DNA of 11,261 bases from Promicromonosporaceae bacterium (GTDB taxonomy: Bacteria; Actinomycetota; Actinomycetes; Actinomycetales; Cellulomonadaceae). Positions 1 through 4,198 of this stretch are shown piece after piece; position 1 is the stretch's first letter, and each line of letters opens with the position of its first letter. Below the pieces are notes generated by a model. It was not told the DNA's origin. It searched no databases and saw nothing but the letters and a program-made list of their open reading frames with translations. A program made the position numbers and the translations under genes. The stretch covers positions 1-11,261 of the forward strand of contig WRIF01000022.1 in NCBI GenBank assembly GCA_009782865.1. Direction: 5' to 3'.

Positions 1-6
1 TTCCTG

Positions 7-12
7 AAGGGA
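7..12 (+). promoter_or_regulatory. Possible ribosome binding site for GTG at 22
   Basis: AAGGGA ends 9 nt before the GTG at 22 and is too close to the TTG at 13 to serve it. It favours GTG 22 as the start, but it would be plain coding sequence if the gene begins upstream of the window. Confidence 0.35.
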
Positions 13-21
13 TTGCCCGGA

Positions 22-552
22 GTGACGATTGTCCCAAAGCGGGGCAATCGCGGCTACCCTCTGGCGGTTGTTAACGGCACGCTAGTTTTCCCCACTCGTC
101 ACGGAGTTGGCTCCAACGGGGTAGACGACCTCGCCGTCGCATGGTCGCAGCTTAAGGCCTCCTTGCTAATGCCGCCGGGGTCGTCGCCGCCCGTTGTCCA
201 AGGTGCGCTGGACCTTGGGAACGCCTTTGGCGCCGTAGACGAGTCTGCGATGGCCGCCACGATCCTCGAGGGTGCCTCACGAACGATACTTGCGGCATAT
301 GACTGCGAAGCCGGATCCGGTCTGCGCGGCCTGACCATTGGCGAGGTCAGCAATTTCACCCAACCTGACGGCAAGATCGAGTGGGCCTGGCACCGGGACG
401 TCTGCCTGGATGTGACGAACGACCGCTCCTCCGTTGCTCCCGTGCTTGACGATGTGCGTGACTTCAACGACGATCCCGAACCCTCTGTCGTACTTGGCCT
501 TCGGGCTATCAGTCCTGCGGCGGAGGCTTCCAGTCAGGAGCCCATCCAGTGA
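22..552 (+). CDS. Uncharacterised protein, first gene of accessory operon (5' end uncertain)
   Basis: I do not recognise this family. The product is about 176 residues, soluble, with no signal peptide or membrane segment. The N-terminal part is basic (VPKRGNRGYP) and runs into a hydrophobic stretch (LAVVNGTLVFPTRHGVG). The middle has a PPVVQGALDLG segment, and the C-terminus is acidic and Ser/Ala rich, probably disordered. I chose the GTG at 22 because AAGGGA lies 9 nt upstream. The frame is also open to the window edge through a TTG at 13, so the gene could start outside. Its stop overlaps the start of the next gene by 4 nt (GTGA), which implies translational coupling to the ImmA/IrrE regulator. 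By position it could be a partner or substrate of that peptidase; this is inference only. Confidence 0.6.
   Translation: MTIVPKRGNRGYPLAVVNGTLVFPTRHGVGSNGVDDLAVAWSQLKASLLMPPGSSPPVVQGALDLGNAFGAVDESAMAATILEGASRTILAAYDCEAGSGLRGLTIGEVSNFTQPDGKIEWAWHRDVCLDVTNDRSSVAPVLDDVRDFNDDPEPSVVLGLRAISPAAEASSQEPIQ
536..551 (+). promoter_or_regulatory. Ribosome binding site and coupled GTG start of the ImmA/IrrE gene
   Basis: AGGAG at 536-540 lies 8 nt before the GTG at 549-551. The GTG overlaps the TGA stop (550-552) of the preceding gene. This fixes the start of the second gene and suggests stop-start coupling. Confidence 0.7.
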
Positions 553-1682
553 GCCCGGACTCCTACGCGCTGATCTCCCGCACATTCGACAAGGACAGGC
601 TTCGGCAAGCCCGCGAGTTTGCAATGCTCACCAAACAGGCGTTGGCGGGTGCCATTGGCGTCTCGGCAGCGGCCGTCAGCCAGTACGAGTCAGGGTCGTC
701 ATCACCACGACCCGACCTGATACCTGCGCTTGCAAAATGTCTAAACGTGCGGCCAGAGTTCTTCACGTCTGGACGCCCGCAGATGCAACTCCCCGTCAAC
801 GAGGCCTTTTTTCGCAGCCTGCGTGCGACTACTGCGAAACAGCGACTCAAAGCAACGTCGTACACAGAGCAACTCTGGGAACTGGTTGAAGCCGTCGAGA
901 CCCACGTGCAACTGCCAGATGTCGGCCTTCCTGGCTTCGCCGGCGGCGAGATCACTCCTGGCTCCCTCCCCGCCGACCCTGTGGCCGCAGCCCAAGCACT
1001 CAGACGCGCTTGGCAGCTCGGACACGGCCCAGTGTCGCACGTCGTCCGTCTCCTCGAGTCCAAAGGGATCATCGTTGTAATTGCACCAGAGAGCACAGAT
1101 GAAGTGGCGCGGATCGATGCCTTCTCTACACTCTGTTTCGCACGCCCACTGGTGATCCTGTCGCTTGATCGAGCAGACGACATATACCGGTACCGCTTCA
1201 CGGCAGCCCATGAGCTCGGGCACCTCGTTCTGCACGGCGGGGCACTTGGAGGTGACACTGTCATAGAGCGTGAGGCCGACCGGTTCGCTGCCGAGTTCCT
1301 GACTCCTAACCTCAGCATTCGTCCACTTCTTCCCGCCCGCGTGGACTTTCGGAGACTGCTCGACCTTAACGCCGAGTGGGGCATCTCAGTCCAGTCCCTC
1401 ATTTACCGAGGCCGGGAAGTGGGCCTCTACTCAGAAGCCACCGCGCGACGTGCGTATATACGGCTCAACCAACTGAGGTCACAGGGACTGATTCCCTCTC
1501 ATCCGGTCAGCAACTACCCGGGGGAGGTGCCCAGTATGCTCCGGCAGGCCGTCGAACTGGCAGACGCAAATGGAGTATCCACCTCAGCGCTCGCCAAACA
1601 ACTCGCATGGAAGCATGCACACCTATGCCAAATGCTCGGAGTGACCGATAGACGGCCACTTCTAGAGATCGTTCCAAAGTGA
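549..1682 (+). CDS. XRE-family HTH regulator fused to ImmA/IrrE zinc metallopeptidase
   Basis: This 377-residue protein has the COG2856 architecture. An XRE-type helix-turn-helix occupies about residues 15-71, with LAGAIGVSAAAVSQYESG as the DNA-recognition core. A helical linker follows. The ImmA/IrrE peptidase core lies at about 160-320. Its zinc motif HELGH is at 221-225 (AAHELGHLVLHG), and EREADRFAAEFL at 240-251 supplies the probable third metal ligand (likely E242). All catalytic residues look intact. In this family the peptidase typically cleaves a repressor or partner protein in response to stress or phage signals, and the HTH binds DNA, often its own promoter. It sits between an unknown gene (4-nt overlap) and a TIGR04141-type gene (13-nt gap), so it probably regulates this operon. 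The promoter and operator would lie to the left of the window. Confidence 0.93.
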   Translation: MSPDSYALISRTFDKDRLRQAREFAMLTKQALAGAIGVSAAAVSQYESGSSSPRPDLIPALAKCLNVRPEFFTSGRPQMQLPVNEAFFRSLRATTAKQRLKATSYTEQLWELVEAVETHVQLPDVGLPGFAGGEITPGSLPADPVAAAQALRRAWQLGHGPVSHVVRLLESKGIIVVIAPESTDEVARIDAFSTLCFARPLVILSLDRADDIYRYRFTAAHELGHLVLHGGALGGDTVIEREADRFAAEFLTPNLSIRPLLPARVDFRRLLDLNAEWGISVQSLIYRGREVGLYSEATARRAYIRLNQLRSQGLIPSHPVSNYPGEVPSMLRQAVELADANGVSTSALAKQLAWKHAHLCQMLGVTDRRPLLEIVPK

Positions 1683-1687
1683 AAGGA
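1683..1687 (+). promoter_or_regulatory. Ribosome binding site of the TIGR04141/DUF6119 gene
   Basis: AAGGA lies just after the upstream stop (1680-1682) and 8 nt before the ATG at 1696. It is a good match and supports this start and operonic translation. Confidence 0.7.
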
Positions 1688-1695
1688 AGATTCGC

Positions 1696-3366
1696 ATGTC
1701 TCACAAAGAAGGGGCGAGTTACCGTACGACCATCTATAGGTTGGCCAACCTCGAGAAGGCGACTGACGCAGTCAGGCCCCAATATCTGACGTCCGACAAC
1801 TTCTCGGCAACCGAAATCATGGTTGACGACAGACCTGGCTTGATGGTGTTCGGCTCCATGAAGCGAGCGGAGGCAAAGTGGTGTGAAGCGCTGTCATCGC
1901 TATCAGGACGGCGCATAAAGGTGTCAGGGGAGAGTCCAGCAGGAGTTCTCCTCGTAAAACCGAAACTGAAAAATGCAGTAGAAGATCGCATCTGGCATGC
2001 CCTGACATACGGAATGGGCTTCCTGTTGCTCGATCCAAAGTATGTCGATAGCCTGTTCGGCCAAAAAATCGCGATTCGCATAGCGGAGCCAGATAGCTTA
2101 CACTCCTTGACGTCTACCACTATGAATGAACGCTCCCGAACATCAAGGTTGTCAATTCCCCAGGGGGACAATCTGCTAGGCTTTGGGATCGGAGGCATCG
2201 GAGAAGCGGTTAGCCGGGTTGTTGCGTTGGCCGATCTGAGTGAATTCTCAGCATCTAGAAGATCTCCTTTACAAATCAAAGGCTCAGATGCCCTGAATCT
2301 GCCGATTTCTTGCGACCCCATCAAAGCGTTGTCCGACCTGGATCAACTGGAAGAAATTCTGAAGCAAGAACCCTCGGAAGAATTGCGAGCATTGGAGCAA
2401 CTCACGAAAATTAGCAATCCAGATCGCGTGACAGAATTGGACGCACTTCTATCAAAGGCACTTGATGAGCTCGAAGACGACAAGAGCACAGCCCGAATTG
2501 GCCTGTCTTGGCCTCATGAAAGACTCGAGGACAACAGAGCGCCCGACTCCTGGATGCCAAGGTCCATGTTCACCAGCCGCAACAACAAACTTCAAGATGG
2601 GCAACCAACTTGGTCCGTAGTCAGCAGTGCGATAGCTGAGCAAGGCAAGGGAAACAGACTTGACCGATTGACGCGAGCCAGCATTCAACTGTTCAGAGAC
2701 GCCGGTGGTGATGAAGCAATCAGTCGTCATATTCCACTTAAGAAGTGGATTGCATTCGAGGCCGAAATGAAGGGCCTCACCTATACGCTCTTCGATGGCG
2801 ATTGGTATCGGGTAGATGACGATTATGCTCTCAAGATCGACCAGCGCGTCAGGGAATTGTTTGAGCACGCATCCACTGATGACCGGCTTATCGACTGGAG
2901 CAGTGAAGATGACGAAAATGAGTACAACACGAAACTTGCCAAGGAATTTGGCGGAGTCTGCCTCGACGCGAAGTTGCTATACACCGATCTCCACAAGCGC
3001 GGCATCGAGGCCTGCGACGTTTACTTGCCAGGAAACACACTGATACACGTCAAACGAACGGAGAGGTCTTCCGACGCTAGCCACCTTCTGTCGCAAGCCC
3101 TGGTATCAGCGGACGCCCTGCTGAAGGATGAAGAGGCTAGGAGACAGTTGAGGAACAGAATTATCGACGCAGGAGGCCTGGATCCCAACGACGTCAAGCC
3201 GCGCAAAATCATAATTGGTCTACATCGCAAGGATGGGCTGAATATTACTCCAGAATCGTTATTTACTTTCACAAAGGTCAACCTTGTTCGACAATCAGAA
3301 TCTCTTCGAAGCCATGGCATTGAGGTCCGAGTCCAGGTGATAAATCCCGTAAAGACTTCAAAGTGA
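1696..3366 (+). CDS. TIGR04141/DUF6119 family sporadically distributed protein
   Basis: This 556-residue soluble protein resembles the TIGR04141 (DUF6119) family, as I recall it, in length and in three places. These are an N-terminal region with IRIAEPDSLHSL (127-138), a glycine-rich segment LLGFGIGGIGEAVSRV (160-175), and a C-terminal block CDVYLPGNTLIHVKR (440-454) followed by ASHLLSQALVSADALL (461-476). Typical members are about 500-600 residues, so it appears full length. The family has no established biochemical function that I know of. The D441...HVK453 arrangement is reminiscent of a PD-(D/E)XK nuclease core with His in place of Glu/Gln, but this is only inference. The gene lies 13 nt after the ImmA/IrrE regulator, has its own RBS, and ends the operon. 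Its GC content is near half, with TTA, ATA and AGA codons, unlike the GC-rich genes to the right. This indicates recent horizontal acquisition. Confidence 0.85.
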   Translation: MSHKEGASYRTTIYRLANLEKATDAVRPQYLTSDNFSATEIMVDDRPGLMVFGSMKRAEAKWCEALSSLSGRRIKVSGESPAGVLLVKPKLKNAVEDRIWHALTYGMGFLLLDPKYVDSLFGQKIAIRIAEPDSLHSLTSTTMNERSRTSRLSIPQGDNLLGFGIGGIGEAVSRVVALADLSEFSASRRSPLQIKGSDALNLPISCDPIKALSDLDQLEEILKQEPSEELRALEQLTKISNPDRVTELDALLSKALDELEDDKSTARIGLSWPHERLEDNRAPDSWMPRSMFTSRNNKLQDGQPTWSVVSSAIAEQGKGNRLDRLTRASIQLFRDAGGDEAISRHIPLKKWIAFEAEMKGLTYTLFDGDWYRVDDDYALKIDQRVRELFEHASTDDRLIDWSSEDDENEYNTKLAKEFGGVCLDAKLLYTDLHKRGIEACDVYLPGNTLIHVKRTERSSDASHLLSQALVSADALLKDEEARRQLRNRIIDAGGLDPNDVKPRKIIIGLHRKDGLNITPESLFTFTKVNLVRQSESLRSHGIEVRVQVINPVKTSK

Positions 3367-3526: not shown

Positions 3527-4198
3527 TCACCCGCTTCCGACCGCTCGGCACCAACCCGCGCGGGTCACAATGAGATGATCGAGAAAGCGAAGTCCCGCTG
3601 CGCTGGCCCCGGCACCAATCTTCTCGGTCGCTTCAGCGTCCGCGGAGCTGGGTGTTGGGTCGCCACTTGGGTGATTGTGCGCCACCGCGAAGGCCACGCC
3701 GTCGTGCCGGAGGACGGTGGCAAGGATTTCCCTGACCGGCAGCGGGCACGATTTGGCCGAACCAGTCGCCACCACCTCGGCTCGACGGAGCCGATTGGCG
3801 CCATCGACCACCAGCGCCAACACCTGCTCGGTTCGCGCGCTCCCAATCCGCGCCTGCGCCACGCGAGCGATGTCTGCCGAGCTGGCGATCACCTCCCCCT
3901 CCATGCCGCCTCCGGCTCGGGCCGCTAGGGCGAAGGCCGCGCAGAGGCGCGCGGCCTTGGCTGGCCCCACCCCGGGGTGTCTCGCCAGTTCCTCCGGGCG
4001 CGCCCTTACCTACCCAGCGAGGCCTCCCCAGTCGGCTAGGAGACGGTAGGCCACGTCGATGGCACTGGCCCCCTCGCAACCTGTCCCGAGCTGCACGGCC
4101 ACCAACTCGGCGCACGACAGCCCGTTTGGGCCGTTTCGCAGCAGTCGCTCGCGAGGCCGATCACTGATCGGCAGGTCCTTCATTCTCGGTGACTTCAT
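3527..4198 (-). pseudogene. radC: radC, interrupted by an in-frame amber codon
   Basis: Read through, this is a 222-residue RadC-like JAB/MPN protein of normal family length. The N-terminus carries MKDLPISDRPRERLL and CAELVAVQLGTG. A helix-hairpin-helix follows (ELARHPGVGPAKAARL). The C-terminal MPN domain has a complete metal motif, AHNHPSGDPTPSSAD, at about codons 173-187 (His174, His176, Asp187), and ends in LDHLIVTRAG. Codon 63, in GGLAG-stop-VRARPEEL, is TAG at 4010-4012 on the minus strand. The reading frame is unchanged on both sides, so one substitution (for example from TTG or CAG) explains it. The MPN part could be re-initiated at the GTG at 3970. The start may be ATG 4198 or ATG 4183; neither has a clear RBS. 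RadC's cellular role is unsettled, despite its old DNA-repair name. A sequencing error at one base would restore the gene. Confidence 0.85.

What the first reader, a model, noticed from the sequence alone, without database searches (positions are those of the whole stretch)
22..3366. Three-gene cassette: unknown protein, XRE-ImmA/IrrE, TIGR04141/DUF6119
Seen: three same-strand genes with a 4-nt GTGA overlap and a 13-nt gap, each with a good RBS, and a GC-poor third gene. Known: ImmA/IrrE peptidases act as stress- or phage-responsive triggers, and TIGR04141 proteins are sporadically distributed with no assigned function. Inference: a regulator/sensor-peptidase controls a putative effector, with the first gene a possible partner or target of the peptidase. 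This could be a defence or toxin-antitoxin-like system.
Basis: partly seen in the sequence, partly recalled or inferred. Interest (0 to 1): 0.7.

Follow-up and report, generated by a model that had tools for sequence, protein, structure and literature searches.

The report
Toxin-antitoxin operon with a third gene
This looks like a bacterial toxin-antitoxin pair, cut off at one end by the contig edge, with an extra uncharacterised protein added; comparison of its relatives suggests that many toxins of this class may jam the ring-shaped clamp that holds DNA polymerase on DNA.

Summary
Genes 2 and 3 are as reported. Gene 1 runs off the contig start, so start 22 is false and only 183 C-terminal residues remain. 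Gene 2 is an XRE + ImmA/IrrE protein matching the RosmerTA antitoxin RmrA (PADLOC 1.4e-92), zinc site intact. Gene 1 occupies the RmrT toxin position and connects to RmrT models only through a chain of weak profile matches. So genes 1-2 are best read as a RosmerTA pair. Gene 3 (TIGR04141/DUF6119) is a recurrent add-on: it directly follows an RmrA-type gene in 9 of 32 other loci, with RmrAs only 27-32% alike attached to DUF6119s 64-68% alike; in at least five further loci it sits in or beside restriction-modification genes. Unexpected: proteins in the RmrT position often carry a sliding-clamp-binding-like motif (Qxx[LMI]F) mid-protein, in 15 of 36 viral-contig clusters against 2.3 expected. That fits a 2025 report that one Rosmer toxin, RipA, targets DnaN; its main text has none of the motif terms I searched. 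The window's copy is degenerate (QGALDL), and several partners lack the motif. DUF6119's activity is unknown.

The parts
1..552 (+). C-terminal part (183 aa) of a gene in the RmrT (toxin) position, cut by the contig start; clamp-motif-like VQGALDLG at fragment residues 66-73 (bases 196-219)
   Evidence: Open frame to base 1; profile match to the upstream proteins of L011/L047/L048, prob 92%, E 5.9e-7; no Pfam/NCBIfam/PADLOC hit of its own
549..1682 (+). RmrA-type antitoxin: XRE HTH (residues 18-72) + ImmA/IrrE (Peptidase_M78) domain with HELGH at residue 221
   Evidence: PADLOC RmrA 1.4e-92, residues 7-372 of 377; Pfam; NCBIfam spr1629 antitoxin 4e-30, below its cut-off; H221 E222 H225 H229 E240 invariant in 21 aligned RmrA-type proteins; HELGH
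1696..3366 (+). TIGR04141/DUF6119 protein, 556 aa, function unknown; conserved C-terminal core E407, D424, E438-x-C-D441, K453, Q467

Best explanation
The locus is a RosmerTA toxin-antitoxin operon, toxin gene first (RmrT type, truncated here by the contig edge) and XRE-ImmA/IrrE antitoxin second (RmrA), to which a DUF6119 gene has been added as a third, probably co-transcribed component. Inferred working: RmrA represses the operon and neutralises RmrT. When RmrA is disturbed, for instance by phage infection, RmrT is freed, docks by a mid-protein motif into the protein-binding pocket of the DnaN sliding clamp and stops replication (abortive infection). DUF6119 is a second effector or partner under the same control, possibly nuclease-like. 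Shown here: identities of genes 2 and 3, the truncation, the recurrent linkage, the module swapping, the motif enrichment among proteins in the toxin position. Inferred: that gene 1 is toxic, clamp binding by this copy, the trigger, and anything DUF6119 does.
For: RmrA identity. Gene 1: window to L011/L047/L048 group E 5.9e-7, that group to L002/L003/L005/L021 3.6e-8 and to L050 1.3e-4; L050 to a PADLOC RmrT model 7.2e-11. RmrT models match 3 of 10 upstream proteins and 9 of 9 viral ones (these nine were chosen for bearing the motif). DUF6119 linkage 9 of 32; module swap, DUF6119 64-68% against RmrA 27-32%. Motif: 15 of 36 clusters against 2.3 +/- 1.5 in shuffles (maximum 9 in 2000), RmrA control 3 of 36, neighbours 3 of 93; middle 30% of the protein 15, outer 70% 0. 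Literature: RipA, toxin of a Rosmer TA, interacts with DnaN, and suppressors lie in the DnaN protein-binding pocket (PMC12795458, sections 8, 9, 12).
Against: PADLOC does not hit gene 1 nor its nearest relatives from L011, L047 and L002. Of 55 profile comparisons among 11 groups of upstream proteins only 4 exceed 50% probability, and the window fragment matches only one group directly, so the upstream proteins are a set defined by position, not one proven family. The window's motif QGALDL meets neither the strict pattern nor the relaxed one, only the looser one. Proteins without a match at the site: L011 and L002, three of four upstream proteins on plasmids with window-type RmrA (L185, L186, L188), Escherichia phage L191, prophage L193, Gordonia phages L189/L190 (the last two match only outside it), and 9 of 36 viral clusters on the relaxed pattern in the middle. 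[LMI]F without the Q is not enriched (11 against 13.0 shuffled). One Rosmer toxin (Gordonia phage Kita) is reported to act on membranes (PMC10440598). DUF6119 has no RmrA upstream in 23 of 32 loci, 3 of these at contig edges.
Confidence: 0.6

Rival explanations
1. DUF6119 is the real toxin/effector and RmrA its direct regulator or antitoxin; gene 1 is an accessory sensor or protease substrate.
For: Tight spacing after RmrA (3-56 nt in the seven loci with intact frames); the linkage changes repeatedly on the DUF6119 tree (gains or losses); DUF6119 also lies in or beside restriction genes.
Against: The upstream gene, not DUF6119, is the usual RmrA partner; several upstream proteins match RmrT models; DUF6119 has no RmrA upstream in 23 of 32 loci, 3 not assessable.
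Confidence: 0.15
2. RmrT-RmrA is only a maintenance (addiction) module of mobile DNA and DUF6119 is an unrelated passenger.
For: Relatives of gene 2 (tblastn E up to 1e-5, many of them distant) lie on 195 of 72,556 plasmid records; the four examples fetched lie near ParA, relaxase, transfer or transposase genes; low GC.
Against: One DUF6119 clade carries very different RmrA genes in the same position, not expected of a passenger; DUF6119 also lies in other defence-type operons.
Confidence: 0.2
3. Gene 2 is an ImmA-type anti-repressor peptidase that cleaves a phage or ICE repressor to induce a mobile element; gene 1 is a remnant of that element.
For: ImmA family, intact zinc site.
Against: HTH and peptidase are in one protein as in RmrA, and the best PADLOC match is RmrA; I saw no integrase or phage gene among the window's ORFs (by reading only).
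Confidence: 0.05

Closest known systems
RosmerTA (RmrT/RmrA) phage-defence toxin-antitoxin family
   Same: Partner gene first, XRE + ImmA antitoxin at 1.4e-92 to a PADLOC RmrA model, 4-nt gene overlap
   Different: Third gene DUF6119; toxin subfamily without a PADLOC RmrT hit; toxin gene truncated in this contig
RipAB (Spr1630/Spr1629) of Streptococcus pneumoniae, a Rosmer TA whose toxin targets DnaN (PMC12795458)
   Same: spr1629 antitoxin is the best NCBIfam hit of gene 2 (4e-30); HTH + ImmA antitoxin
   Different: 105 bits against a cut-off of 335, so not the same equivalog; RipA's sequence was not compared here
SocAB of Caulobacter (clamp-binding toxin; known here through PMC12795458 section 12)
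   Same: Same proposed target pocket on the sliding clamp
   [quoted passage not shown] not compared here
TIGR04141/DUF6119 family
   Same: Nearly full-length match well above both cut-offs
   Different: No functional paper found in the library searched (one paper holds a term, on wheat)

Membership tests
RosmerTA | Antitoxin with HTH + ImmA/IrrE domain of the RmrA family | tested here: met
RosmerTA | Adjacent, overlapping partner gene | tested here: met
   4-nt overlap; upstream ORF in 17 of 22, 26 of 30 and 76 of 80 loci (some are wrong frames or duplicates)
RosmerTA | Partner matches an RmrT family | tested here: inconclusive
   No PADLOC hit for the fragment or L011, L047, L002; indirect chain through L050
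RosmerTA | Toxicity neutralised by RmrA; phage protection | not testable with these tools
   needs experiment
TIGR04141/DUF6119 | Score above curated cut-offs | tested here: met
   333 bits against 27, 298 against 35
Sliding-clamp-binding proteins | Canonical motif QL[SD]LF or close variant (consensus recalled) | tested here: not met
   Window copy is QGALDL. Strict pattern met by 15 of 36 viral clusters of proteins in the toxin position
PD-(D/E)xK nucleases (considered for DUF6119; motif recalled) | Acidic residue, then (D/E/Q)xK on the next strand | tested here: not met
   E407, D441, K453 in 40 of 40 aligned members, but residue 451 is His in the window and variable elsewhere (Gln in L044)
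PD-(D/E)xK nucleases (considered for DUF6119; motif recalled) | Fold | not testable with these tools
   structure prediction switched off; no significant relative among solved structures (best E 0.66)

The most novel reading that the evidence does not exclude
RosmerTA toxins, or most of them, are replication-clamp inhibitors: very divergent proteins in the RmrT position share little but a clamp-binding peptide in the middle of the protein, so a broad phage-defence family would work by jamming DnaN. In some actinobacteria this module is coupled to DUF6119, a portable defence protein that also joins restriction-modification operons.
Probability: 0.55. Interest if true: 0.8.

Novelty: new variant of a known kind. 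Interest (0 to 1): 0.62.

Why it matters
RosmerTA is named in published defence surveys (listing), but in the two papers read here the action of only two of its very diverse toxins is described (one on DnaN, one on membranes). A shared clamp-binding motif would give one target for much of the family, fit the published RipA-DnaN genetics, and be testable by a few point substitutions and a two-hybrid assay. The repeated attachment of DUF6119 to RosmerTA and to restriction genes marks an unstudied family (12 of 396 actinobacterial genomes, the window's among them) as a likely defence component worth testing.

Tried and rejected
Homologues of the 183-aa fragment: only itself among 162 candidates. 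DUF6119 profile against solved structures: nothing significant (best E 0.66). Weak Pfam hits of 58 DUF6119 members: scattered, none in more than 2 members. Upstream-protein profile A2 against solved structures: none. DUF6119 in phage records: none found; in viral contigs: 16 pattern matches, none confirmed. Own genome searched with A2 for the missing part of gene 1: only the window. Genes after RmrA in seven other loci: DUF3800, a weak PIN match, UPF0489, four without Pfam match; no common theme. Filing DUF6119 as a PD-(D/E)xK nuclease: rejected, the ExK position is not met.

Rows dropped and limits of the counts: (discovery set) dropped L042, L046, L081, L083, L084 (duplicates) and L003 (bad start), gave 37 clusters, strict 6 (shuffle mean 1.14, maximum 6), loose 22 (mean 10.7); after dropping 9 probable wrong frames, 28 clusters, strict 6 (mean 0.99, maximum 5), loose 20 (mean 9.3). 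One search used 76 of 80 loci (4 had no upstream ORF); L175 looks like a wrong frame and was kept. The motif idea was written down before the viral loci were fetched, but the strict pattern was fixed after one search had printed looser matches in that set; the middle-30% window and the relaxed pattern were set later still. For this and for the poor similarity among upstream proteins the odds of the novel reading were lowered from 0.6 to 0.55 on checking. One search left out 11 duplicate or fragment rows and left L004 and L028 unlabelled. Only some neighbours of DUF6119 genes were scanned (annotated plasmids 37-43).
Full report
WHAT IS THERE. The window is one whole contig of a 77.6% complete actinobacterial assembly. 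Gene 1 is not: its frame is open to base 1, so it is the last 183 codons of a gene cut by the contig end. GC is 0.62, 0.60 and 0.51 for genes 1-3 against 0.70 for the rest. The right flank (complementary strand) reads as radC, a purU-like gene, a long fused ABC transporter and malate dehydrogenase, with an aquaporin-like gene on the + strand (read; names recalled, not searched).

GENE 2 IS AN RmrA. It has an XRE HTH and a Peptidase_M78 domain, matches PADLOC RmrA model PDLC03955 at 1.4e-92 over residues 7-372 of 377, and keeps HELGH at residue 221; H221, E222, H225, H229 and E240 are invariant in 21 aligned RmrA-type proteins. NCBIfam's best hit is the spr1629 antitoxin, 105 bits, below its cut-off of 335.

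GENE 1 IS PROBABLY AN RmrT-TYPE TOXIN FRAGMENT. It has no hit of its own in Pfam, NCBIfam or PADLOC, and the protein search found only itself. But a gene in this position is the rule beside RmrA relatives: an upstream ORF of over 100 aa in 17 of 22 loci (two, L049 and L067, look like wrong frames) and 26 of 30 (several look like wrong frames, three repeat earlier loci), and of over 90 aa in 76 of 80 viral-contig loci. Profile comparison puts the window fragment with L011/L047/L048 (prob 92%, E 5.9e-7), that group with L002/L003/L005/L021 (95%, 3.6e-8) and, weakly, with L050 (54%, 1.3e-4). L050's protein matches a PADLOC RmrT model (7.2e-11), as do those of L053 and L051; 7 of the 10 scanned, L011, L047 and L002 among them, match none significantly. 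Only 4 of 55 comparisons among 11 groups exceed 50%, so the upstream proteins are a positional set of very divergent members, not one proven family.

GENE 3 IS A RECURRENT ADD-ON. Besides the window, 9 of 32 DUF6119 loci have an RmrA relative directly upstream: L002, L003, L005, L008, L009, L011, L019, L021, L026; in L004, L028 and L029 the gene lies at the contig edge and cannot be judged. In 8 of the 9 (not L026) a further gene abuts or overlaps RmrA upstream. On a 42-row tree (40 labelled) the linkage needs 6 changes, gains or losses, 5 forced by well-supported branches; shuffled mean 8.9, as low in 8 of 500. The clearest sign of a real tie is swapping: the L008 DUF6119 is 64-68% identical to those of L002, L003, L005 and L021 (L021 by a fragment), yet its RmrA is only 27-32% identical to theirs; against L011 the window shows DUF6119 42%, RmrA 51%. 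RmrA does not need it: the genomes of L047 and L048 have no DUF6119, four annotated plasmid examples have none beside RmrA, and among L075-L104 (about 1.5 kb flanks) only the window's own copy had it.

Away from RmrA, at least five DUF6119 genes lie in or beside restriction genes: next to a type I methylase in L025, between HsdM and HsdS in L036, after an MmeI-like gene in L034, after an AlwI-type endonuclease in L044, between HsdS and HsdR on a Mameliella plasmid. L006 has a Shedu SduA domain gene about 1.7 kb upstream. Other neighbours gave no Pfam match or none of this kind. No phage record or confirmed viral contig was found to hold it. In 40 divergent aligned members E407, D424, E438, D441, K453, Q467, F121 and W370 are invariant. 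The spacing recalls a PD-(D/E)xK core (recalled), but residue 451 is His here and variable elsewhere, so membership is not met and the nuclease idea stays weak.

THE UNEXPECTED RESULT. The spr1629 paper in the listing names the sliding clamp. Rereading the upstream proteins I saw that many carry a peptide like the bacterial clamp-binding motif (consensus QL[SD]LF, recalled) and noted it before fetching the viral loci. In those, 76 upstream proteins form 36 clusters at 40% identity. Q..[LMI]F occurs in 15 of 36, against 2.3 +/- 1.5 in shuffled copies (maximum 9 in 2000), 3 of 36 RmrA controls and 3 of 93 neighbouring ORFs of 150-300 aa; all 16 occurrences lie at 0.46-0.66 of the length. The exact pattern was fixed after one search had printed looser matches in the same set. 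In the middle 30%: 15 against 0.6 shuffled, outer 70% none; a relaxed pattern 27 against 3.6, outer 2 (window and relaxed pattern set after seeing the data). The [LMI]F pair without the Q is not enriched (11 against 13.0), so D-for-Q forms should not be counted as support. Nine viral proteins chosen for the motif all match PADLOC RmrT models, six different ones. In an alignment of 11 members chosen for the motif or a close variant, only the initiator Met and the motif Q are invariant and the F nearly so; the choice of rows favours that.

In the window's own group the site is QGALDL. Of 22 relatives aligned (of 46 found) 19 have Q in the same column, mostly as Q..[FL]D[FL]; four divergent ones read QHPLF, QDDLF, QADIF and QADLF at or next to it. 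In the DUF6119-linked loci L019 (QLELF) and L021 (QPMLF) are canonical; L002, L003 and L005 have D for Q (DPQLF, DPMLF); L011 shows nothing at the site on these patterns. Upstream proteins on plasmids with window-type RmrA: L187 has QTMFDF, L185, L186 and L188 no match; phage partners L189, L190, L191 and L193 lack it at this site.

LITERATURE. PMC12795458 (abstract, sections 8, 9, 12 and passages read) shows that RipA, toxin of a Rosmer TA, interacts with DnaN in two-hybrid and split-luciferase assays and that suppressors lie in the DnaN protein-binding pocket. In it 'clamp binding motif', 'clamp-binding motif' and 'QLSLF' occur zero times. Searches for Rosmer with DnaN or clamp terms find no other paper that names Rosmer. 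PMC10440598 (outline with abstract, section 6 and passages read) describes RmrA paired with diverse RmrTs and one membrane-active RmrT. TIGR04141/DUF6119 has no functional paper in the library searched.

HOW IT LIKELY WORKS. See the best explanation. Shown: identities of genes 2 and 3, the truncation, linkage, swapping, motif enrichment in the positional set. Inferred: that gene 1 is toxic, that it binds the clamp, that RmrA senses phage, and what DUF6119 does.

Noticed in passing
window 3527-4198 (complement): The radC-like gene is interrupted by a single in-frame stop near base 4010: sequencing error or pseudogene. Described only.
   Followed up: partly
L025, L034, L036, L044, L070: DUF6119 genes inside or beside type I and other restriction-modification genes.
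   Followed up: partly
L068, L069 (Streptomyces plasmids): DUF6119 preceded by an unknown ~200-235 aa gene without Pfam match, with TPR or NB-ARC genes downstream and divergent methyltransferase and specificity-subunit genes upstream.
   Followed up: no
L082 2640-4088: A 482-aa gene without Pfam match 21 nt after a window-type RmrA: another candidate third gene.
   Followed up: partly
L135 4100-5284: A DUF3800 gene directly after RmrA in a viral contig.
   Followed up: no
L071 (Agrobacterium plasmid): TIGR04141 gene next to a very long NACHT-domain gene.
   Followed up: no
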